From positions 1 to 39,444 of IMG/VR virus record IMGVR_UViG_3300033153_009965: a DNA stretch of 39,444 nt. One strand, written 5' to 3'. This stretch comes from a virus. Below, piece by piece: positions 784 to 39,444 of this stretch; the stretch's first letter is position 1, and each line of letters begins with the position of its first letter. Made by a program: the position numbers and the translations under genes. A model generated the notes under the pieces. That model was not told the DNA's origin, did not search any database, and was given only the letters and a program-made list of their open reading frames with translations.

Positions 784-795
784 AACAAGGATAAG
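784..795 (+). promoter_or_regulatory. Ribosome-binding motif AACAAGGATAAG
   Basis: AACAAGGATAAG ends 2 bases before the ATG at 798. The AAGGA core is the Shine-Dalgarno. The flanking AAC and TAA are conserved at the starts of four right-arm genes, which is more than ribosome pairing alone requires. Confidence 0.6.
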
Positions 796-3608: not shown

Positions 3609-4908
3609 GGTTATGACTGATAATCCCAAGCTGAAAATGAAAGACTTTCAGATTGAGGGAGTTAAATTCATCCTAAGGCACCTATATGCAATCATTGGGG
3701 ACCAAATGGGGCTAGGGAAGACTGTTCAAGCTATAGCCCTCTCCCTTATCACAGATTCTAGAACCTTAATTATGTGCCCTGCAAGTCTCCGATATAACTG
3801 GGAAAACGAGTTTGCAAAATGGTCACTAGTATGCCCCACCATTCATGTAGTTGGGACTGAGGACCTAGATGCAGACTTCTCTATGTTCAAGGTTATTATA
3901 GTGTCCTACGACTTAGTGGCTAGGTATCCAGAATTATTGGATGAAAGGGAACTGGTTGTATTAGATGAAATTCAAGCAATTAAGAATGAGAAAACTAACC
4001 GATTTGAAGGAGTTGAAGAATATGTTAAAAGAATCAAACCGAAGTACCTTGTGGGTCTGTCTGGCACTCCAATCACTAAATCTGTTACTGATTGGTACGC
4101 TCTATTATGTCTCCTATCCCTTTGTCCCGAAGATACTAATGGGTATAATGTTAAGTACCTTTTTCCTCACTTCTATAATTTTGCTACGCACTTCTCTTTT
4201 GAAAGGAAGCAAACACTAACCAATAAGAAAACTAAGAAGAAGTTTAAGGTGACCTCATTCTCGGGAGTTCAAAGGTATGAGGAGTTACAGAGACTTAAGA
4301 AAGGAAAGTATATTAGGAGGTTAGCTAAGGACCACCTAGACCTACCTACCTTCACAAGGAAGGATGTAATCATTGATAGGGATATTGATGCTGATTTAAA
4401 GAGGGCTTGGGAGAATGGGGATATAGATAACGAGTCAGTAATGACAGCTAAGGCTCACTCTGCATTTCTTAAAGGTCCAAGTACAGGTAATTATGTTAAG
4501 GATTTAATTAGGGATGGAGAAGGTCCAGTTGTTATTTTTACCGACCATATAAATCCAATAGTTGAGATAAAGAAAAGATTAAAAAAGTATAAGGGTGAAG
4601 TAATCCAAGGACTTATCAAGTCAGAAAAACGTCAAGAAATAGTTGACAGATTTCAGGCTGGAGAGTTAGACTACCTTATCGCTACTTATGAAACAGCAGC
4701 CGAAGGTTACACAATGACCAGAGCAAGGAATATGGTGCTGAATGATTTACCTTGGAAACCTAAACTTATCGAGCAAGCAGAATATAGATTGATAAGAATT
4801 AGTCAGGAGAGGAAAGTAGTTATCCATAGGATTATTAAGGGTATTGTGGATGAAAGAATTGTAGTTAAGTTAACAAGTAAAATTCGTGACATAGATAAAG
4901 TCACATAA
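3592..4908 (+). CDS. SNF2-family (superfamily 2) DNA helicase
   Basis: 438 residues; an ATP-driven DNA translocase of the short phage SNF2 type found beside PolA and DUF2800/DUF2815. N lobe: FQIEGVKFIL, Walker A GDQMGLGKT (near 35-43), CPASLRYNW (Ia), Walker B VVLDEIQAIKN (near 125, DEIQ rather than DEAH), LSGTPI (III). C lobe: VVIFTDHINP (IV), IATYETAAEGYTM (V) and QAEYRLIRISQ (VI, normally QAxDRxxRIGQ). No nuclease domain is fused. A GGGCGGGA Shine-Dalgarno lies just before the ATG. Confidence 0.92.
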   Translation: MKKLVEVMTDNPKLKMKDFQIEGVKFILRHLYAIIGDQMGLGKTVQAIALSLITDSRTLIMCPASLRYNWENEFAKWSLVCPTIHVVGTEDLDADFSMFKVIIVSYDLVARYPELLDERELVVLDEIQAIKNEKTNRFEGVEEYVKRIKPKYLVGLSGTPITKSVTDWYALLCLLSLCPEDTNGYNVKYLFPHFYNFATHFSFERKQTLTNKKTKKKFKVTSFSGVQRYEELQRLKKGKYIRRLAKDHLDLPTFTRKDVIIDRDIDADLKRAWENGDIDNESVMTAKAHSAFLKGPSTGNYVKDLIRDGEGPVVIFTDHINPIVEIKKRLKKYKGEVIQGLIKSEKRQEIVDRFQAGELDYLIATYETAAEGYTMTRARNMVLNDLPWKPKLIEQAEYRLIRISQERKVVIHRIIKGIVDERIVVKLTSKIRDIDKVT

Positions 4909-4909
4909 C

Positions 4910-4922
4910 AAGGAAAATAAGA
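4910..4922 (+). promoter_or_regulatory. Variant ribosome-binding motif AACAAGGAAAATA
   Basis: AACAAGGAAAATAAG precedes the ATG at 4923. It keeps AACAAGGA but not the full ATAA of the other sites. No TTGACA element is close by, so the site is probably internal to the operon. Confidence 0.45.
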
Positions 4923-5528
4923 ATGCATATCAATGAATTTAGATTTATGAAAAGAAAGAACTTAGGTAACTATGAGCATGAAGAAGTCACTATGGCTGCT
5001 AGTGTTGATGAGTCCGACAATGTAGTTGAAGTGGCTCTATTTGTTAAACAAGAAGTATATAGAGCACTAGGAGAAGTATATGTTTCCAATGTTGAAGTTG
5101 CTGCCAAAAGCGATACTGCATCTAATAAAGAGGAATTACCTCCTAAGGTACCTGCGACTAAGAAAGCTGCGAAAAAAGCACCTAGAAAGAAGGCAGCAAA
5201 GAAGGTGGCAGGAAAACAGAATGTTTCATCGGTACAACATGAGTCCGGGGACGATAATGGAGTTTCGAGGGAAACCCCCACTAATAATAAAGGACAAAAT
5301 AATGCTTCCGAGAGGAACGGAGATAAAGGACGACTGGGACATGACGGAGTAAAGGTAACAGCAGCCACTCTTGAGGATGTTAGAAAGAACCTCAGCCAAG
5401 TTTGGAAGAGCGAAGGTAAGGGAGTAGCTTTTGGTATTCTTGAAAACTTTGGAGCTAAGAAGTCCGAAGAACTTACTCCTGATGTCTACACTGAAGTTAT
5501 AGATAAATGTCAGCAGGTGTTGGCGTGA
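4923..5528 (+). CDS. Lys/Ala-rich two-domain phage protein
   Basis: 201 residues. The N-terminal domain (INEFRFMKRKNLGNYEHEEV) matches a conserved phage replication-module protein. The middle linker (near 75-100) is AAKKAPRKKAAKKVAGK-like, resembling histone H1 tails, and probably binds DNA or is disordered. The C-terminal domain (TLEDVRKNLSQVW to FGAKKSEELTPDVY) is a small helical module also found in other phage proteins. Its position between helicase and nuclease suggests an accessory role in replication or recombination. The function is not established. Confidence 0.8.
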   Translation: MHINEFRFMKRKNLGNYEHEEVTMAASVDESDNVVEVALFVKQEVYRALGEVYVSNVEVAAKSDTASNKEELPPKVPATKKAAKKAPRKKAAKKVAGKQNVSSVQHESGDDNGVSRETPTNNKGQNNASERNGDKGRLGHDGVKVTAATLEDVRKNLSQVWKSEGKGVAFGILENFGAKKSEELTPDVYTEVIDKCQQVLA

Positions 5529-7274: not shown

Positions 7275-7391
7275 GGGGTTGTAGCTCAGCTGGTAGAGCA
7301 CCTAGGAGACTAAAGTTCGATTCTTTAGGCACCTCCGTGTGTAGTGGTCTATCCCGGGAGGTCGCTGGTTCGAGTCCAGCCAGCCCCTCCA
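7275..7391 (+). tRNA. tRNA-like gene interrupted in the anticodon region
   Basis: The ends are canonical: acceptor GGGGTTG (7275-7281) pairs fully with CAGCCCC (7381-7387, one G-T), then discriminator T and encoded CCA. The D arm is GCTC-AGCTGGTA-GAGC (7284-7299); the T arm is GCTGG-TTCGAGT-CCAGC (7364-7380), preceded by a normal AGGTC variable loop. Between base 26 (7300) and the T arm there are about 41 more bases than in a normal tRNA. The extra part contains CTAAAG-TTCGATT-CTTTAG (7310-7328), a second T-arm-like hairpin that could instead be an anticodon arm reading CGA (Ser), and ACCTCC/GGAGGT (7331-7362). Identity is undetermined; it may be an intron, a chimera or a pseudo-tRNA. Confidence 0.65.
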
Positions 7392-32452: not shown

Positions 32453-33966
32453 TCGTAATACTCCGAGTCAATATGTTCAAAGGGGTTAGCAGCTGCTCTC
32501 TCATCGCGGAGCCCGTCCTCTAACCTAGTATATCTGCTCATCTCTTGCGCCTCGGTTTGGTCAGGAGCCACAACAGGAACTGTATCATAATAATTATTCG
32601 ATAGGATGTATCGTAGGCAATCAATCTCATGGTCGTCCTCTGAACCAGTGTCCTGATTCTTAACAATTCTACCCTTATCATCTACCCTGTACTCCGCAAA
32701 CTCATTGAACGTGTTTGGTGCTTTTTCACAGAAGAGGAGGCACCCCTTAAGGAGTAACATATCCTTAATCAGGTTAATTCGGTCTTCCTTCTTCTTCTTA
32801 AAATCCTTTCGGCAAGGCTCAAGCCCATATTCGTACTCATTGCTTACTTCATTCGCAAACCAAAGGGCTGCATTATCATATATCATTCTACAGTCATCGA
32901 ACAAAATATTCCACTTCCTAAGTAAATCTAGGGCTCTTGGGAATATCTGCTTAGTACTCATTTTAGCTTTTTTGGTCTCATATATCTCATCGAGCACTAT
33001 AACTTGCTTAGTTTCCTTGTGAATTACGGTCAGTTGGACTGCAAAGATTGATGCTGAGGCAGGGTCAAAGCAGAGGAAGAACTCCCAATCCTTATAGTAC
33101 TTTAGCACCCTCTCCCTACAATCTAGTTCAGAGATAATGTGCTCATCCTTATTAATCATCGGAAAGATGTTCCTCTGACCAGCTTGCACTCTCTTGGCAC
33201 CATATTCCCTAAACCACTTATCCTCTTCACCCTTGGCAAATAGCTCTGCTTTCTTCCTCTTCAGCCAATCCTTATCAATGTGGGGATTAACCCAAGAAGG
33301 CATGTTGAAATAAGCTTGATTTTCAGCTGTTCTAGCGTAATCAGCCATAGAGTTGAAATTCTTCTGATTGTCCTCATCGCCTTCACAAGGTGTACCCACG
33401 ATAATGAGAGGGGCGTTGAATGTTGCTAAGTTTGGGTCCATACCAGTATGAAATTTGGGATGATGGTCCTTGAACTCATCATAAACAATAAGATGTGGAT
33501 TGATACCACGATATGCTTGGTGGTTATCCGCCCCATCCAACTTCAGGAAGGAACCATTATTAAACTTTATCCTCATCTCACTATCATTAGGTTTCCCATT
33601 GATGTACTTCTCAGTGAGCTCCTTATATATCTGGTAGGCTTCCTCTCGACTATGTTTACCGTCAAAGGTGCGACCTGTTTCAGGGTTTATTAGGGGGAGG
33701 AAGAAATTCTGGAGTCTGTTGTTTGCCCAAACTAGCTCTTTCGCCTGTTTCTGAAAGGGGGCGATAAAGTAGCAGGCTGAATTGGGGTTACTGAGGGCGT
33801 AACGGTAGAGGAGATAGGCAAGCATCTCAGTCTTTCCAAACTTACGCCCACACTCAAGGAAGATAACTTCCTTACCTTCCCCAAATAGGGCTTTCTTTAT
33901 AAGTGCTTGTCCGTCATGAGGCTGCCAACAAAGCTCTAAATCAAGAATCAGGTCCGATTCATAAAT
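32449..33966 (-). CDS. Terminase large subunit
   Basis: DNA-packaging motor ATPase and nuclease. The frame from 33825 (first ATG) lacks Walker A, which lies upstream: FLECGRKFGKTE, preceded by LDLELCWQPHDGQALIKKAL. Walker B is HLIVYDEFKD; nuclease acidic residues are in FLCFDPAS, MIYDNAA and DDHEIDCLRY. Upstream of 33825 the frame has no ATG, GTG or TTG back to a TAA at 34009-34011. The best candidate start is ATT at 33966-33964, five bases after AGGAACAGG, giving about 505 residues, a normal size; CTG at 33951 or frameshifting from the 57-residue gene are alternatives. The function is certain; the start is not. Confidence 0.9.
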   Translation of the reverse strand: MYESDLILDLELCWQPHDGQALIKKALFGEGKEVIFLECGRKFGKTEMLAYLLYRYALSNPNSACYFIAPFQKQAKELVWANNRLQNFFLPLINPETGRTFDGKHSREEAYQIYKELTEKYINGKPNDSEMRIKFNNGSFLKLDGADNHQAYRGINPHLIVYDEFKDHHPKFHTGMDPNLATFNAPLIIVGTPCEGDEDNQKNFNSMADYARTAENQAYFNMPSWVNPHIDKDWLKRKKAELFAKGEEDKWFREYGAKRVQAGQRNIFPMINKDEHIISELDCRERVLKYYKDWEFFLCFDPASASIFAVQLTVIHKETKQVIVLDEIYETKKAKMSTKQIFPRALDLLRKWNILFDDCRMIYDNAALWFANEVSNEYEYGLEPCRKDFKKKKEDRINLIKDMLLLKGCLLFCEKAPNTFNEFAEYRVDDKGRIVKNQDTGSEDDHEIDCLRYILSNNYYDTVPVVAPDQTEAQEMSRYTRLEDGLRDERAAANPFEHIDSEYYE

Positions 33967-33989
33967 TAGAGCCTGTTCCTGCTCTTGAC

Positions 33990-34163
33990 TTATTTCTTGT
34001 ATACTGGCTTACCCGTATGAGGGTGATTCCCCAAAAGGATACCTTTAGCTTTAGCCTTTTTAGCCTCTGCCTTTTCCTTAGCTTCTAGAGCTTTAAGCTC
34101 CTTAGCCTCTTGGTTCTTCTTATCCTTAGCTTCTTGTTCTTTTTCAGTTAACTTTTTACTCAT
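33990..34163 (-). CDS. Small Lys/Ala/Glu-rich protein between terminase genes, 57 residues
   Basis: ATG 34163 with AAGGAG 6 bases upstream; stop TAA at 33990-33992. A highly charged helix (SKKLTEKEQEAKDKKNQEAK; LKALEAKEKAEAKKAKAKG) ends in a conserved-looking tail (ILLGNHPHTGKPVYKK). The stop lies 23 bases before the proposed large terminase start. Position suggests a packaging accessory; a -1 shift from its end would enter the terminase frame, but no slippery heptamer is present. Confidence 0.65.
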   Translation of the reverse strand: MSKKLTEKEQEAKDKKNQEAKELKALEAKEKAEAKKAKAKGILLGNHPHTGKPVYKK

Positions 34164-34224
34164 TATTTTCTCCTTATTTCTGATAATAACCTTTAGTGGT
34201 TGTGAATGCTAGTAGGGAATATTG

Positions 34225-34839
34225 TCAAGTGCTTTTGGTGGGGGATTTTGCAAAATCTTGATGGGGTTGTGAGTCGCTATCATCACTATCAAACCCATCT
34301 AGGGGGGTCTCCAACTCCTTGTAATTACACTCGATGCTCTCTATGTCCTTGATATCCTTAGCCTCACTACTAGTATCTGACTGCAGCACCAATAGACGCT
34401 CTGCAATGGAGAGTGACCTATTGCGTTGGGTGATGCGTATGGTTATATCTTCATGTACTGCATCATTGTATTGATTCGGTGCGTATCTATTGGCTAACCG
34501 AGTCAATGCCATGACGCTAGGTGGTAAGTGTTTAGTGCTTTGCTTCATTTTTATGATGCGGTCCGGATTGCTGTCATCAATCCACTCTTCAGTATTCGTG
34601 ACCTCAACGGCACCTAACGCCAAGCGTTGTAATCCAGTCCCTATGACTTCCTGAGCTGCTAGGGTTTGCATCGAGTCACATTGCTGCTTGAATATTGAAT
34701 CCCTAGCCATCCAATAACGTATAGCACTAAGGCTAACGCCAAGCATCACACTAATCTCTCTCAACGTCCTCAATTCACTCAATCCATTTACTACTTTTTC
34801 CTTAAGTATTTCAACTGTTTGCCTGTTTGTAAGTCTAAT
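34225..34839 (-). CDS. Terminase small subunit
   Basis: Binds viral DNA for packaging. N-terminal HTH: RTLREISVMLGVSLSAIRYWMARD, then LPPSVMALTRLANRYAPNQY and an ITIRITQRNRSLSIAERLL segment. The frame has TTG at 34782, but terminase-like sequence continues upstream (LTNRQTVEILKEKVVNGLSE) with no ATG, GTG or TTG. ATT at 34839-34837 has GAGGAG exactly 6 bases upstream, whereas the TTG has no Shine-Dalgarno at proper spacing. From ATT the protein is 204 residues. The acidic Ser/Asp-rich C terminus is probably disordered. Confidence 0.75.
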   Translation of the reverse strand: MRLTNRQTVEILKEKVVNGLSELRTLREISVMLGVSLSAIRYWMARDSIFKQQCDSMQTLAAQEVIGTGLQRLALGAVEVTNTEEWIDDSNPDRIIKMKQSTKHLPPSVMALTRLANRYAPNQYNDAVHEDITIRITQRNRSLSIAERLLVLQSDTSSEAKDIKDIESIECNYKELETPLDGFDSDDSDSQPHQDFAKSPTKST

Positions 34840-34870
34840 AAGATACTCCTCACTATATAATGATATCCAC

Positions 34871-34900
34871 TTGACAGAATTATCCCTAATCCTGTATATT
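34871..34900 (+). promoter_or_regulatory. ACTTGACA-class promoter, rightward
   Basis: TTGACA (34871-34876), an 18-base spacer and TATATT (34895-34900), about 20 bases before the palindrome CTCAATTGAG and the AACAAGGATAA ribosome site. It overlaps the region read leftward as the start of the small terminase transcript, so the two arms are controlled from shared DNA. Confidence 0.6.
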
Positions 34901-34951
34901 CCCTCATAGTAACAGAACGCTCAATTGAGAGCAAACAAGGATAATCGCAGA

Positions 34952-35320
34952 ATGGAAATTTACTTAAATTTGCACAAAATGAAGTGGGCTTTGCGTGGCA
35001 AGGTTGATGGAAAGAAGAAAGTTCAAGGCTATTGTGACCAATGTCTTATTAAACCTACTCGCACCTTTATCTCTGAAAAGAGAAGACTAGCTATTGTCGC
35101 TGCATTGCCTAAACGCTCAAAGGAAATTCATGCATTCATTGAGGGAGAGCTACTCTCAACTAATGAGCCTATGGATACCTCCTCACTTGTTGAGATGAGT
35201 TATAATCCCTATTACGCAGGGTATTGGTACACCTCAAAAGACAAGCAACCTATTGACCCTATGCAATTCACTTACCTTTACTTTGATTCAAATACTAGGA
35301 AATGCTACGGCATTAAGTAA
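34952..35320 (+). CDS. Conserved phage protein of unknown function, 122 residues
   Basis: Start chosen at ATG 34952, 10 bases after AACAAGGATAA; a TTG at 34925 would place the ribosome motif inside the gene. The product begins EIYLNLHKMKWALRGKVDG and carries KRSKEIHAFIEGEL and SYNPYYAGYWYTSKDKQP. This N-L-H-K-x-x-W-x-L ... K-x-x-H-A-F pattern belongs to a family of small phage proteins of unknown function. Beta-rich, soluble. Probably early expressed. Confidence 0.7.
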   Translation: MEIYLNLHKMKWALRGKVDGKKKVQGYCDQCLIKPTRTFISEKRRLAIVAALPKRSKEIHAFIEGELLSTNEPMDTSSLVEMSYNPYYAGYWYTSKDKQPIDPMQFTYLYFDSNTRKCYGIK

Positions 35321-35325
35321 CAATC

Positions 35326-35341
35326 GGTGCAATTACGCACC
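35326..35341 (+). other. Short hairpin next to ribosome motif
   Basis: GGTGC-AATTAC-GCACC lies two bases before TAACAAGGATAA of the next gene. A 5-bp stem with no U-run, so not a terminator; it may limit or position ribosome entry. Confidence 0.35.
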
Positions 35342-35358
35342 TTAACAAGGATAATATT

Positions 35359-35787
35359 ATGGGCTTTTCAAGCTCTCTTTGCGCAAAGACTAAAGTTTCA
35401 ATTCCAGCTAATTTAGGGGAAAGCATACCTAGAAAGCATAGTGCGGTAGTTGCCCTCTTTTCAGACGGTTCTATCTTCAAAGGTGACTATGATGGATATC
35501 AGCGTCTAATGATGGATGATGCCCTAGTGATTAACATTATGGATAAGCTAAAGGAAATAGGAGCCTTTAAAGATGATGGTAATTTTATGGACGAGTTCTA
35601 TGCCAATGTTAAGCTAGTACTTCAATCAGCATACACTGGGGAAAAATTCGATGACTTACCCCCTAGCGAGAATTGCCCATATCAAGGTTTCTTCTATCCT
35701 GATTTTGCCTTGCACTACTTTCAAGGCTTAATTGAGCTAGAAGGATATGAGGCTAATTACGCACTGGATATGAAACTAAACCACTAG
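35359..35787 (+). CDS. Conserved phage protein of unknown function, 142 residues
   Basis: AACAAGGATAA precedes the ATG at 35359. It begins GFSSSLCAKTKVSIPANLGE and has AVVALFSDGSIFKGDYDGYQ, matching phage proteins with the G-F-x-S-x-x-C-A-K-T-x-x-S-I-P-A start. The C-terminal half is acidic (FDDLPPSENCPYQGFFYPDF). Likely an early accessory protein acting on the host. No enzymatic motif. Confidence 0.7.
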   Translation: MGFSSSLCAKTKVSIPANLGESIPRKHSAVVALFSDGSIFKGDYDGYQRLMMDDALVINIMDKLKEIGAFKDDGNFMDEFYANVKLVLQSAYTGEKFDDLPPSENCPYQGFFYPDFALHYFQGLIELEGYEANYALDMKLNH

Positions 35788-35789
35788 AC

Positions 35790-35818
35790 TTGACAATCTT
35801 AACCACATTAACTATTTT
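35790..35818 (+). promoter_or_regulatory. ACTTGACA-class promoter directly before a terminator
   Basis: TTGACA (35790-35795), a 17-base spacer, TATTTT (35813-35818). The expected start point falls at the edge of the terminator hairpin at 35824-35842, so transcripts would begin inside it. Either start-site-proximal control or a decoy. Confidence 0.4.
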
Positions 35819-35823
35819 AAAGG

Positions 35824-35847
35824 AGCCTACAATTAGTAGGCTTTTTT
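35824..35847 (+). terminator. Rho-independent terminator
   Basis: AGCCTAC-AATTA-GTAGGCT, a perfect 7-bp stem with five-base loop, followed by five more T. It ends the 34952-35787 unit. Confidence 0.85.
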
Positions 35848-35884
35848 AATACCTAATCATGGGCAACAACAAGGATAAAACACC

Positions 35885-36946
35885 GTGAAAACACAATTTA
35901 AACTTAATGAACTAGCAGCCAAGATTACTCAAGAACAAGCGTCAAAGAAAGACTACCTTGCCAATACTGAACAAGTGAAAGCCCTTCCCAATGGTGAGAT
36001 TGAACTAAAAGACATCGGACTCTTTAAGGTGAATAATAACGCTCACTCCCAACTATCCGCTAGGCTTAACATACCTAAGAAATACTATGACAAAATGACA
36101 GTTGAAGCGCCTGAGCTATGGGCTAACAACGTAAATCACTGGCTTTCTAATAATCCAGAGCAAAGATTAATCAGAACATTAGACGGCAAGGTTAGGGCAT
36201 TTCTATCCGACCGTTATAGGGTACTAGACAACGTCGACCTTTTAGAAGCTGTATTGCCCACATTGATGGAAAGGGATGACTTATCAATTGAATCCTTGGC
36301 ACTGACTGAAAATAAGCTTTATCTTAAGGCTTTCTTCACTAACCTTAACGCTGAGGTCACTAGCTCACCGAGAGTCAATGACTTTGTTAACGCTGGACTA
36401 TGCATTTCTAATTCTGAAGTAGGAGCTGGCTCTCTATCAGTTTCACCTATGCTTAACTTCCTATTCTGCTCTAATGGTCAATATTCCGACCGCTCAACTA
36501 AAAAATACCATACTGGGGTTAAAAATAGCGTTGTAAATGGTAGTGAGATAACAACCTTCCTAACCGATGCGACAAAGCAAGCTAGGGATAGAGCTACCTT
36601 TATGGAATTGAATGACCTTGTTAAGTCTTGCATGAATATTGAATTCTTTAATGATGAAATTGCTAAGATTGAAGGGCTTACTTCTCAGAAAATTGACGGT
36701 GAGATTATTGAAGTTGTTAAATCTACATCAAAGCTATTTGGGTTCAGTGAGGAGCAAAATACAGGCATTTTAAACCACCTCATAAAAGGTGGGGACTTAT
36801 CACGCTATGGGTTAATGAATGCCGTTACTAGGACTAGCCAAGACATCAATTGTTATGAGCAAGCTGATATGATGGAAAAGGTAGGGGGTAAAATAGTAAC
36901 CTTATCAAATCACGACTGGAAAACATTAAGTACTGCCGTTGCATAG
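35885..36946 (+). CDS. DUF932 family phage protein
   Basis: 353 residues. It matches DUF932 through LIRTLDGKVRAFLSDRYRVLDN, followed by a helical and beta region (LYLKAFFTNLNAEVTSSPRV; GLCISNSEVGAGSLSVSPML; FLTDATKQARDRATFM). These proteins occur in phages and plasmids, often among anti-restriction and early genes; the molecular role is unknown. Starts at GTG 35885, 7 bases after AACAAGGATAA. Followed by a terminator, so it is a one-gene unit. Confidence 0.8.
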   Translation: MKTQFKLNELAAKITQEQASKKDYLANTEQVKALPNGEIELKDIGLFKVNNNAHSQLSARLNIPKKYYDKMTVEAPELWANNVNHWLSNNPEQRLIRTLDGKVRAFLSDRYRVLDNVDLLEAVLPTLMERDDLSIESLALTENKLYLKAFFTNLNAEVTSSPRVNDFVNAGLCISNSEVGAGSLSVSPMLNFLFCSNGQYSDRSTKKYHTGVKNSVVNGSEITTFLTDATKQARDRATFMELNDLVKSCMNIEFFNDEIAKIEGLTSQKIDGEIIEVVKSTSKLFGFSEEQNTGILNHLIKGGDLSRYGLMNAVTRTSQDINCYEQADMMEKVGGKIVTLSNHDWKTLSTAVA

Positions 36947-36978
36947 GTAGTAATTAGGGGAAATTAATACAATGGGAT

Positions 36979-37003
36979 AGCCTACTGAATAGTGGGCTTT
37001 CTT
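36979..37003 (+). terminator. Rho-independent terminator
   Basis: AGCCTACT-GAAT-AGTGGGCT, 8 bp with one G-U, followed by TTCTT. It ends the DUF932 unit; the left arm sequence AGCCTAC is the same as in the terminator at 35824. Confidence 0.75.
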
Positions 37004-37019
37004 ATGCCCAATAGCCAAC

Positions 37020-37048
37020 TTGACAAAGCTACCCTATTCCCTCATATT
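37020..37048 (+). promoter_or_regulatory. ACTTGACA-class promoter
   Basis: TTGACA (37020-37025), a 17-base spacer, CATATT (37043-37048). Directly follows the terminator and precedes GTTGCTCAATT and the AACAAGGATAA site at 37067-37077. Confidence 0.55.
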
Positions 37049-37085
37049 TAAAGTTGCTCAATTATGGGCTAACAAGGATAAAGAC

Positions 37086-37445
37086 ATGTTAATTAAAACT
37101 CCCCTGCAAAGGGAAATTGTTTCAATGTTCCAAAGGACTATTATTACCACCTCAATTTATGGGGGAAATAGCTATCTAAATTCCTGTAGTTTGGGGAGTT
37201 TTGAAAACAAACTGCAGCCACCTTTTAATGATACTGATAAAGAGGAGTTAAAAAGAGCCCTCAGTACCCTAGTAAGGCGTAAAGAGCTAGTGAGCTATCG
37301 CCCTTTCACCTATAACGGCAAGTTGAGGCAATGGGGACTACCTGAAATTAAGCAGGATAGATGCCGCAAAGTAGGACTGGACATCAATGCTAAAAATAAA
37401 GCTAGGATAAACGCTAAAAATAAGGGGCTATGTAATGTTAATTAA
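37086..37445 (+). CDS. Hypothetical protein with possible winged-helix part, 119 residues
   Basis: Start chosen at ATG 37086, 8 bases after AACAAGGATAA; the open frame reaches a TTG at 37020 which is really the promoter's TTGACA. Residues 70-105 (DKEELKRALSTLVRRKELVS, then YNGKLRQWGLPE) look like a winged-helix unit. Basic C terminus (KNKARINAKNKGL). Overlaps the GP88-like gene. May bind nucleic acid; not a recognised family. Confidence 0.6.
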   Translation: MLIKTPLQREIVSMFQRTIITTSIYGGNSYLNSCSLGSFENKLQPPFNDTDKEELKRALSTLVRRKELVSYRPFTYNGKLRQWGLPEIKQDRCRKVGLDINAKNKARINAKNKGLCNVN

Positions 37446-38100
37446 TATCAAAGACACTTGGGGCATCAATCGCCTGCTAGTCGAGAATAGGAAAGTTAAA
37501 AAGAGTGAGGGAAAGACTTTCAATTTCCCCCTACCTGCATTCAAGGCTGCTACTGGAGAGACCATTTGCCATCAAGCCAAGGACTGCATTAAGCCTTGCT
37601 ATGCTCAAGTCTACCCTTATGTTATCCCGGTAGTTAATGCAGCTCATAATAGGAATTTTGAGTTCTCAAAGACTCCTCATTTTGTTGACTCGGTAATCAG
37701 TGAGATATCCAAGAAAAAGAAGGTTGATAGGATACGCATTCATGACGGTGGAGACTTCTATAGTAGTGAATACCTTAGCAAGTGGTTTAAGATAGCTCTC
37801 ACGTTCCCTAATATAGAGTTTTATTTCTATACTAAAGAAGTAGGCATGCTTAAGGAATGGGGTCCTATTGTGCCTAAAAATATGACTCCTATCTATTCTT
37901 ATGGTGGAAAGCAAGACCACCTCATTAACCCCAAGACTGATAGGCATTGCAAAGTATTTCCTACTAGTGAGGAGTTAACCGCAGCCAATTATTCAGACGC
38001 TTCAAATGATGACACAGTGGCTACTGGGATTAATAAACACGTTGGCATTGTCTATCATGGTGTAGCGTCTAAAAACACTTTTAATAAAAGGAGAGTATAA
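37435..38100 (+). CDS. GP88-like phage protein with Cys cluster, 221 residues
   Basis: Matches the phage GP88 family: NFPLPAFKAATGETICHQAK leading to a cysteine cluster C-x5-C-x3-C (Cys45, 51, 55), PCYAQVYPYV, then RIRIHDGGDFYSSEYLSKWF and FPNIEFYFYTKEV. The cysteines and the barrel-like strands recall radical SAM or other iron-sulfur enzymes, but the family function is unknown. It overlaps the preceding gene by 11 bases. Probably an early host-takeover gene. Confidence 0.75.
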   Translation: MLINIKDTWGINRLLVENRKVKKSEGKTFNFPLPAFKAATGETICHQAKDCIKPCYAQVYPYVIPVVNAAHNRNFEFSKTPHFVDSVISEISKKKKVDRIRIHDGGDFYSSEYLSKWFKIALTFPNIEFYFYTKEVGMLKEWGPIVPKNMTPIYSYGGKQDHLINPKTDRHCKVFPTSEELTAANYSDASNDDTVATGINKHVGIVYHGVASKNTFNKRRV

Positions 38101-38216
38101 TGTTAACCGATTTAAAATTTCAACTCGCTGCATACTTCCTATTTCTTATAGGGCTAGGAGTAACCATATTATTCACAATTTACTCGTGTTACATAAAGAG
38201 AGGTACAAAATGGTAA
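38100..38216 (+). CDS. Small membrane protein, 38 residues
   Basis: ATG at 38100 overlaps the previous TAA (TAATG). One membrane helix (LAAYFLFLIGLGVTILFTIY) with a short basic tail (CYIKRGTKW). AAGGAGAG precedes it. Overlaps the next gene's start. Role unknown. Confidence 0.55.
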   Translation: MLTDLKFQLAAYFLFLIGLGVTILFTIYSCYIKRGTKW

Positions 38217-38335
38217 ATGAAATGACGTATGAGGAATTTATAGCTTTATTTGATAATAATATAGAGTTACAAGACAAAATAGACTTACTTGAAAATAAAT
38301 TAGGCATACTTGTCGTAATTAAAGAGGAGGAGTAA
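38210..38335 (+). CDS. Small acidic helical protein, 41 residues
   Basis: ATG 38210 with AGAGAGG upstream; the stop overlaps the next ATG (TAATG at 38333-38337). Product VNEMTYEEFIALFDNNIELQ, then DKIDLLENKLGILVVIKEEE: coiled-coil-like and acidic. Possibly an antagonist or adaptor; no family recognised. Confidence 0.55.
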   Translation: MVNEMTYEEFIALFDNNIELQDKIDLLENKLGILVVIKEEE

Positions 38336-38577
38336 TGGCATTAAATGATAAATTTACATTACAGGAAAAGGTTCAATATTCTATGTTAAATAACCGTGAG
38401 GCAGCTATTTATCGTGCTATGTCTAATGCTCTATATGAGAAGCTGGCAGTTCCCACTCAAGAGTTAGAAGACTTTATAAAATATGAAGATGATACTTTGA
38501 CTGGAGACCAATTTATAGAATTAAAATCAATATTAACCGATTTAAACCGTATACAAAAAGAACTTGCGGAGGTATAA
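38335..38577 (+). CDS. Hypothetical protein, 80 residues
   Basis: Helical, acidic (DKFTLQEKVQYSMLNNREAA; LEDFIKYEDDTLTGDQFIEL; LTDLNRIQKELAEV). GAGGAGGAG precedes the ATG. Last gene of the unit starting at 37086 and followed at once by the anti-ribosome-motif hairpin and a terminator. No family recognised. Confidence 0.6.
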   Translation: MALNDKFTLQEKVQYSMLNNREAAIYRAMSNALYEKLAVPTQELEDFIKYEDDTLTGDQFIELKSILTDLNRIQKELAEV

Positions 38578-38590
38578 ATTTCCTACGCAA

Positions 38591-38656
38591 CTAACAACTT
38601 ATCCTTGTTAGGAAGGGGCTCTAAATTCATCCGTGATTTTAGAGCCCTTTCTTTTT
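38591..38656 (+). ncRNA. Candidate 3'-UTR small RNA with anti-ribosome-site loop plus terminator
   Basis: Hairpin CTAACAA-CTTATCC-TTGTTAG (38591-38611) contains CTTATCCTTGTT (38598-38609), the exact reverse complement of AACAAGGATAAG. The loop CUUAUCC would pair with GGAUAAG. It is followed at once by a strong terminator. A seed loop plus terminator at a 3' UTR end is the usual build of processed small RNAs. Targets would be the ribosome sites of the genes at 798, 34952, 35359, 35885 and 37086. Seen: complementarity and hairpins. Inferred: regulation. Confidence 0.45.
38613..38656 (+). terminator. Strong Rho-independent terminator
   Basis: GGGCTCTAAA-TTCATCCGTGAT-TTTAGAGCCC, a 10-bp perfect stem that can extend outward with one G-U, followed by TTTCTTTTT. 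It ends the 37086-38577 operon. Confidence 0.9.
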
Positions 38657-38657
38657 A

Positions 38658-38679
38658 CTATCAAACAAGGAAATGATAG
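38658..38679 (+). other. Hairpin with AACAAGGAAA in its loop
   Basis: CTATCA-AACAAGGAAA-TGATAG, a perfect 6-bp stem whose 10-base loop carries the ribosome motif. The ATG at 38673 would start only a six-codon frame (MIATFK). It could be the remnant of a gene start or a sponge for the anti-site hairpin just upstream. Confidence 0.45.
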
Positions 38680-38698
38680 CTACCTTCAAGTAATTTCA

Positions 38699-39058
38699 TT
38701 ATATTCCAGCACTTATAGCTTTGTCCAATAGGTCAAAGAACTCCTCATGCTTTAAAATAACTATCCAGTCCTTTCCATTCTTTTTATGAAATACTACTGG
38801 CTTATTATCCGACCCTACACAGTCCTTTTCAGCCTGCTCAATAGCCTTATAAGCGTTGAATTGTTCTACTCGCTTAACTTCTACCAAGTACCCCTCTAAA
38901 CTAGTGACAACGTCTGGACTATCCGGAGAGCCACTAAATTGCTGCCCTCTCCTAGCCTTATATCCATTGTCTCTAAATAGGTCCCTGCATTCTCTTTCAC
39001 CACGACAACCTTTAGCCCTTGAATTAATCTTTTTCTTGCCTTTACTTTTCTTATTCAT
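38699..39058 (-). CDS. PD-(D/E)XK nuclease, Holliday-junction-resolvase-like
   Basis: 119 residues. Motifs in order: KGCRGERECRDLFRDNGYKA (Glu of the core), QQFSGSPDSPDVVTSLEG (Asp), YLVEVKRVEQFNAYKAIEQA (Glu-x-Lys plus Gln), then a strand-helix C end (PVVFHKKNGKDWIVILKHEE). This is the small phage resolvase/VRR-like nuclease layout. Basic N terminus. Lone on the reverse strand; TTGTCG-17-TATTAT ends 6 bases before its ATG with almost no Shine-Dalgarno, fitting a leaderless mRNA. Confidence 0.75.
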   Translation of the reverse strand: MNKKSKGKKKINSRAKGCRGERECRDLFRDNGYKARRGQQFSGSPDSPDVVTSLEGYLVEVKRVEQFNAYKAIEQAEKDCVGSDNKPVVFHKKNGKDWIVILKHEEFFDLLDKAISAGI

Positions 39059-39444
39059 GCCATCATAATAACAAGTAATAGAACTGCCGACAAATTAGGA
39101 TGATTTGCTCTAGTGGTTACTTAGAAGAAGCTAATAATTGTCAACTTAACTTGACGGTTGCTCAAAAAGATAGCTTTTTCAAAGAAATTCGGCACTCCAA
39201 AAAATACAACCCCATAGCCTTAAGAAAATATAGATAGTATGAAACACTCTATCTTTAGACGAGAGTTGTCTCTAAGTTACTGATGCGTGGTGTGTCTCAC
39301 TAAATTAACTTCGTATATCCCAATAAACCGTCAAAACAGTTGCTCAAATATTCAAAAATATAAATGACCCTCTGCATTGCACAGGTGTATAAAACTTGAC
39401 AATATAATTGACACAATTTAGAGTTAAATTTACTTAAAACAAGG
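39059..39444. promoter_or_regulatory. Noncoding regulatory region at the right edge
   Basis: No credible gene in 386 bases. It holds: the reverse promoter TTGTCG-17-TATTAT (39065-39093); an inverted repeat GTCAA-CTTAAC-TTGAC (39140-39155); two copies of GTTGCTCAAA (39157 and near 39339), also seen at 37053 as GTTGCTCAA; a hairpin AGATAG...CTATCT; ACTTGACA at 39394 and a second TTGACA at 39408; and AACAAGG at the last bases. This is the leader of a rightward gene lying beyond the window. Confidence 0.55.

What the first reader, a model, noticed from the sequence alone, without database searches (positions are those of the whole stretch)
38591..38656. Phage 3'-UTR RNA that is antisense to the phage's own repeated ribosome-binding site
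Bases 38598-38609 (CTTATCCTTGTT) are the exact reverse complement of AACAAGGATAAG before the gene at 798 (13 matched bases counting the preceding T). They match 11 to 13 bases of the start sites of the genes at 34952, 35359, 35885 and 37086. The segment forms the loop and 3' arm of a 7-bp hairpin and is followed at once by a strong terminator. One RNA could therefore block translation of at least five early genes, making a genome-wide off switch or timer. No named RNA family is known to me with this form. The alternative is an inverted relic of the motif.
Basis: partly seen in the sequence, partly recalled or inferred. Interest (0 to 1): 0.85.

Follow-up and report, generated by a model that had tools for sequence, protein, structure and literature searches.

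The report
Phage hairpin mirroring its ribosome-binding sites
A phage that starts at least five of its early genes with the same ribosome-landing sequence also carries, just before a transcription stop, a small RNA hairpin whose tip is the mirror image of that sequence; it could shut those genes off, and one group of mycobacterial phages has a similar arrangement, but this phage's own relatives lack it and it may be only an inverted copy.

Summary
38598-38609 is the reverse complement of AACAAGGATAAG. It forms the loop and 3' arm of a 7-bp hairpin at 38591-38611, directly before a strong terminator. The repeated AACAAGGATAA is a ribosome-binding module of early genes, often with a promoter and a small hairpin upstream. 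It works like the Start-Associated Sequences (SAS/ESAS) of cluster K mycobacteriophages (PMC3203893), so the repeated start-site motif is a known kind of thing.

The antisense reading is physically feasible: -6 to -11 kcal/mol at all five sites after the cost of unfolding, beaten only by RNA antisense to the leaders themselves. Relatives G006 and G034 keep the repeated start sequence but have no antisense copy. They are distant (44-59% polymerase identity).

Unexpected support: in K1 mycobacteriophages the single opposite-orientation SAS, reported as unexplained in 2011, is the 10-nt loop of a covarying hairpin in the gap where late transcription starts. Hence two lineages show an anti-start-sequence hairpin.

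Verdict: regulatory anti-start hairpin, confidence 0.4. Rivals are a minus-strand leader copy or relic (0.3) and chance (0.25).

The parts
38591..38611 (+). 7-bp hairpin (arms 38591-38597 and 38605-38611) with 7-nt loop CTTATCC (38598-38604)
38598..38610 (+). anti-start sequence CTTATCCTTGTTA, reverse complement of TAACAAGGATAAG
38612..38656 (+). intrinsic terminator: 18-nt arms about 89% complementary, followed by a T-rich tail
   Evidence: (I4)
784..794 (+). start sequence AACAAGGATAA before the gene at 798 (12-mer AACAAGGATAAG)
34934..34944 (+). start sequence before the gene at 34952, with promoter-like TTGACA-18-TATATT (34871-34900) and hairpin GCTCAATTGAGAGC (34919-34932)
35344..35354 (+). 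start sequence before the gene at 35359, with hairpin GGTGCAATTACGCACC (35326-35341)
35868..35878 (+). start sequence before the gene at 35885 (GTG start); promoter-like TTGACA-17-TATTTT at 35790-35818
37071..37081 (+). start sequence before the gene at 37086, with promoter-like TTGACA at 37020 and hairpin GCTCAATTATGGGC (37056-37069)
4907..4914 (+). shorter start sequence AACAAGGA (continues AAATAAGA) before the gene at 4923
39438..39444 (+). AACAAGG at the contig end, probably a truncated further start sequence; promoter-like TTGACA-17-TAGAGT at 39396-39424
38658..38679 (.). second hairpin CTATCA-AACAAGGAAA-TGATAG just past the terminator; its loop holds the sense start sequence and is complementary to 38602-38609
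38513..38590 (-). 25-codon TTG ORF that the minus-strand copy of the motif could serve (rival reading)
38698..38727 (-). promoter-like TGGACA-18-TATAAT (11 of 12) upstream of the minus-strand copy, inside the 38699-39058 gene (rival reading)

Best explanation
The phage marks at least five early genes with one near-identical ribosome-binding element, AACAAGGATAA, usually preceded by its own promoter-like site and often by a small leader hairpin (shown from sequence). The hairpin at 38591-38611, in the 3' UTR of an early transcript, presents the complement of that element (CUUAUCC in the loop, UUGUU in the 3' arm). The inferred mechanism is that, as 3'-UTR RNA accumulates, the loop first pairs with GGAUAA of a start site, the weak stem opens, and an 11-13 bp duplex covers the Shine-Dalgarno. 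This would lower translation of all marked early genes together, a feedback or shut-off device. The terminator gives the RNA a protected 3' end. Complementarity, hairpin, terminator and favourable predicted pairing energy are shown; transcription, processing, binding and the regulatory effect are inferred.
For: Exact 11-13 nt complementarity to five start sites, unlikely by chance. Loop fully open and 12-nt opening cost only 3.2 kcal/mol; net pairing -11.3, -8.8, -7.7, -7.2 and -6.2 kcal/mol; all 7 of 1500 random phage segments that scored better are antisense to the leaders themselves. Position 13 nt after an early stop codon and directly before a strong terminator. Parallel in K1 mycobacteriophages: the one opposite-orientation SAS is the loop of a hairpin with compensatory changes, in a gap from which late transcription appears to start; loop-SAS duplex -18.7 kcal/mol.
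Against: Relatives G006 and G034 keep several copies or close variants of the start sequence but no antisense copy or intergenic antisense hairpin. AnnaSerena, another SAS phage, has none in 50 of 56.7 kb. In cluster K phages outside K1 the SAS is unchanged but the loop is only partly complementary. The minus strand offers a competing reading. No expression data.
Confidence: 0.4

Rival explanations
1. The working strand is the minus strand: the element is a leader copy (live or relic) in inverted orientation, and the plus-strand 'antisense' is just its complement. A minus-strand RNA from the promoter-like site at 38727-38698 would carry a hairpin, then AACAAGGATAAG, then a short TTG ORF (38513-38590), as several real leaders do.
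For: Every other copy of the 11-mer is a ribosome-binding site. On the minus strand the motif follows a hairpin by about 6 nt, as in several leaders. Promoter-like site with 11 of 12 matches, the joint best of the region, sharing GACAAAGCTA with the promoter-like site at 37020. A 25-codon ORF starts 8 nt after the motif.
Against: The promoter-like site lies in coding sequence of the 38699 gene, and such sites are only slightly above shuffles (20 versus 15.2). The ORF is short, starts with TTG, lies antisense to a gene and has no tested support. Flanks of the motif are not similar to the other leaders beyond chance, apart from one marginal score. On the minus strand the Shine-Dalgarno is predicted to be paired, unlike a working leader.
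Confidence: 0.3
2. Chance: a terminator-associated hairpin that happens to contain the complement of an A-rich Shine-Dalgarno sequence.
For: Not kept in relatives. A coding near-copy exists at 21408-21397 on the minus strand.
Against: The 12-14 nt extent, the loop position and the place directly before a terminator are jointly improbable. The same layout occurs independently in K1 mycobacteriophages.
Confidence: 0.25
3. A protein-binding or cis element: the start sequence and its mirror are operator sites, or the pair 38602-38609/38664-38671 forms a long-range stem around the terminator in readthrough or minus-strand RNA and tunes termination or translation in cis.
For: Second hairpin with loop AACAAGGAAA at 38658-38679; the minus-strand fold pairs the two.
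Against: The other copies sit exactly at ribosome-binding distance from start codons, so a purely DNA-level role is less likely. The minus-strand fold could not be compared in relatives.
Confidence: 0.05

Closest known systems
[quoted passage not shown] 2011, PMC3203893)
   Same: Short, near-identical repeats containing the Shine-Dalgarno, 3-7 nt before start codons, confined to non-structural genes, in one orientation; upstream inverted repeats and promoters; and, in K1 phages, a single opposite-orientation copy away from any gene start.
   Different: Sequence unrelated (AACAAGGATAA versus GGGATAGGAGCCC), fewer copies, unrelated phage, leader hairpins here not conserved in sequence. The opposite copy lies in a 3' UTR before a terminator here, but in a long intergenic gap at the start of late transcription in Adephagia.
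SAS-like repeats of Microbacterium cluster EF phages (PMC7302621)
   Same: Repeated extended ribosome-binding sequence with upstream conserved element.
   Different: No opposite-orientation copy found in the 50 of 56.7 kb examined.
c4 antisense RNA of phages P1 and P7
   Same: Phage RNA whose complementary segments, probably in loops, pair around the ribosome-binding site of a phage mRNA and block translation (review PMC12197685).
   Different: The review describes one target mRNA (ant) for c4; the candidate here would act on five or more separate genes through a shared start sequence. No Rfam match at gathering score here.
3'-UTR-derived and C-rich-loop bacterial sRNAs that pair with Shine-Dalgarno sequences (from general knowledge)
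   Same: Hairpin loop pairing with ribosome-binding sites of several mRNAs; 3'-UTR plus terminator origin.
   Different: Those act on host genes, often with Hfq; nothing here shows a processed RNA.

Membership tests
SAS/ESAS-type start sequences | near-identical repeat containing the Shine-Dalgarno within a few nt of start codons | tested here: met
   five exact AACAAGGATAA, 3-7 nt before ATG/GTG
SAS/ESAS-type start sequences | restricted to non-structural (early) genes, one orientation | tested here: met
   all before + strand early genes; none before late genes; a single opposite copy
SAS/ESAS-type start sequences | upstream inverted repeat/promoter on a subset | tested here: met
   hairpins at 34919, 35326, 37056; promoter-like sites at 34871, 35790, 37020
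SAS/ESAS-type start sequences | homology or shared consensus with cluster K SAS | tested here: not met
   different sequence; no nucleotide match of this region to any phage record; so it works like SAS but is not a member
anti-SAS hairpin of K1 mycobacteriophages | single opposite-orientation start sequence in a non-coding hairpin loop | tested here: met
   window 38591-38611; K1. Which strand is transcribed here is not known
anti-SAS hairpin of K1 mycobacteriophages | conservation with covarying stem | tested here: not met
   met in cluster K; absent from the window's relatives G006 and G034
c4-type antisense RNA | complementarity to a phage ribosome-binding site | tested here: met
c4-type antisense RNA | expressed, processed RNA that represses translation | not testable with these tools
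   no RNA data for this virus record
known Rfam family | gathering-score match | tested here: not met
   (best sub-threshold hits well below cut-off)

The most novel reading that the evidence does not exclude
Phages that tag their early genes with a shared start sequence have repeatedly evolved one anti-start hairpin RNA that silences the whole set at once: here from the 3' UTR of an early operon, in K1 mycobacteriophages from the region where late transcription begins. This would be a one-to-many antisense shut-off of early translation.
Probability: 0.25. Interest if true: 0.85.

Novelty: new variant of a known kind. Interest (0 to 1): 0.55.

Why it matters
The function of start-associated sequences has been listed as unknown since 2011, with an open question whether they bind 'RNA or protein' (PMC3203893). 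The papers that could be read mention the opposite-orientation site of cluster K phages only as an exception. Showing that it is the loop of a covarying hairpin in the gap where late transcription starts gives a direct, testable RNA hypothesis in a tractable phage (Adephagia in Mycobacterium smegmatis), and the window suggests the device may have arisen more than once. If true, a single short RNA would switch off a whole early gene set.

Tried and rejected
Search for DNA relatives of 33800-39444 in phage records: none. Scans with the 37435, polA (single sequence) and 38335 proteins: no relatives. Exact 16-mer ACAACTTATCCTTGTT in viral contigs: 11 hits, none with the full stem and none with a second motif copy in the locus, so chance. 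Extended inverted duplication of a leader: flanks not similar beyond shuffles except one marginal score. Direct analogues in relatives: none. Co-change of SAS and loop in cluster K: SAS is invariant across subclusters while the loop differs, so no covariation between the two could be shown. AnnaSerena anti-SAS: none found. First interaction script gave only zeros because of a notation error and was replaced. Weak Rfam hits (plastid psbA, L10 leader, DapZ) are far below cut-offs. The ZoeJ transcriptome paper (Dedrick 2019), which may treat this, was not found in the library, so prior description cannot be excluded.

Full report
The window is a 39,444-bp virus record. Late genes (terminase, portal, capsid) lie on the minus strand at about 9-34 kb. 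Early genes (polA, SNF2-type helicase, exonuclease, GP88-like and others) lie on the plus strand at 0.1-8.4 kb and 34.9-38.6 kb. In relatives the gene at 38699-39058 and polA are separated by 3.7-5.4 kb, against about 1.5 kb here, and the contig ends in AACAAGG. I therefore infer that a stretch with at least one more early gene is missing after 39444.

38591-38611 reads CTAACAA-CTTATCC-TTGTTAG, a perfect 7-bp hairpin 13 nt after a stop codon and directly before the terminator 38612-38656. CTTATCCTTGTT is the exact complement of AACAAGGATAAG at 784, and of 11-13 nt at 34934, 35344, 35868 and 37071. On Markov models the opposite-strand 11-mer is expected 0.03-0.05 times and the 12-mer about 0.01 times. 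These figures are post hoc but make plain chance less attractive.

What the repeated motif is: each exact + strand copy lies 3-7 nt before a start codon and holds AAGGA. Several are preceded by a promoter-like TTGACA site and a small hairpin (34919, 35326, 37056). Two relatives found through capsid and polymerase searches have their own versions: G006 (polymerase 58-59%), AACAAAGGAAATAAC and variants; G034 (polymerase 44%), six exact copies of TAACAAAGGATAA. The element is thus a repeated, extended ribosome-binding site shared by members of this phage group. This is the same kind of thing as the Start-Associated Sequences with upstream inverted repeats of cluster K mycobacteriophages (PMC3203893) and the SAS-like repeats of Microbacterium cluster EF (PMC7302621). 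It is not a member of either by sequence.

Is the antisense loop conserved in the window's own relatives? No. Neither G006 nor G034 has an opposite-strand copy or an intergenic hairpin with an 8-nt antisense stretch. Among 195 related loci scanned, only those two phages carry repeated leader variants, all in sense. It is weakened by the distance of the relatives, the fact that G034 is a 31.7-kb fragment, and the absence of any close relative covering this region: G001 is 99.5% identical but covers only 21.2-32.75 kb.

Could it work? With accessibility taken into account, the loop costs nothing to open and the 12-nt segment 3.2 kcal/mol. Net energies are -11.3 (gene 798), -8.8 (35885), -7.7 (34952), -7.2 (35359), -6.2 (37086) and -6.2 (4923). 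Of 1500 random 66-nt segments only seven scored better over the five leaders, and all seven are the leaders' own antisense strands. Binding is thus plausible, not shown.

An independent parallel: Pope et al. noted that Anaya, Adephagia, Angelica and CrimD have one SAS in the opposite orientation, not at a gene start. In Anaya and Adephagia I find it in a non-coding gap as the 10-nt loop CCUCCUAUCC of a long hairpin. The region is present in at least 177 mycobacteriophage records. Across 11 diverse phages the stem keeps 94.9% of pairs with four compensatory positions; no shuffle of 500 reached the observed covariation score, and sliding the partners destroys the pairing. The exact antisense loop is fixed in seven K1-like phages. 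In Amohnition, Krueger/PhelpsODU and TClif the loop is C/U-rich but only partly complementary, although the SAS itself is unchanged in those read. RNA-seq in Adephagia places the start of late transcription between genes 92 and 93, the gap that holds the hairpin (PMC11373665). The parallel strengthens the antisense reading but also shows that complementarity is not strictly maintained, and AnnaSerena has no such copy in the part read.

The main rival is strand. On the minus strand the motif follows a hairpin as several real leaders do, an 11-of-12 promoter-like site lies at 38727-38698, and a TTG ORF of 25 codons follows. Against it: the promoter-like site lies in coding sequence, leader flanks are not similar, and the Shine-Dalgarno is predicted to be paired. 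Strand-specific RNA data would decide.

Conclusion: the repeated start sequence is a new example of a known kind (SAS-like). The mirror-image hairpin is a credible but unproven anti-start RNA (0.4), with a minus-strand leader copy (0.3) and chance (0.25) as live alternatives. The most valuable outcome is the link to the unexplained opposite-orientation SAS of K1 mycobacteriophages, which makes the idea testable in a laboratory phage. I could not check whether the ZoeJ transcriptome paper has already described this; it was not found in the library.

Noticed in passing
L164 (Adephagia JF704105 58677-58724), L163 (Anaya JF704106 about 59850-59900): Conserved non-coding hairpin of cluster K mycobacteriophages with a loop antisense to their own start-associated sequences; stem covaries across 11 phages.
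   Followed up: yes
window 7275-7388: tRNA-like gene (Rfam RF00005, 47.5 bits) of 114 nt with an insertion in the anticodon region that contains a second T-arm-like stem-loop (CTAAAG-TTCGATT-CTTTAG); ARAGORN does not call it. Looks like a fused or degenerate tRNA.
   Followed up: no
window 38658-38679: Second hairpin CTATCA-AACAAGGAAA-TGATAG just beyond the terminator; its loop holds the sense start sequence and is complementary to the loop/arm of the 38591 hairpin.
   Followed up: partly
window 39438-39444 and window 1: The contig ends inside a start sequence (AACAAGG) and lacks a stretch between the 38699 gene and polA that relatives have; the virus record is incomplete there.
   Followed up: partly
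G006 (L105-L107), early region: Promoter repeats GTGTTGACATAGTTTAAACACCTAT and several other GTTTAAAC palindromes; possibly an operator of an early regulator.
   Followed up: no
window 34871-37100: Several early genes here appear to have their own promoter-like site, leader hairpin and short terminator (for example 35823-35850, 36979-36998), suggesting gene-by-gene transcription units.
   Followed up: no
window 38699-39058: Minus-strand PDDEXK-type nuclease gene conserved in G006 and G013 and in many other viral contigs.
   Followed up: partly
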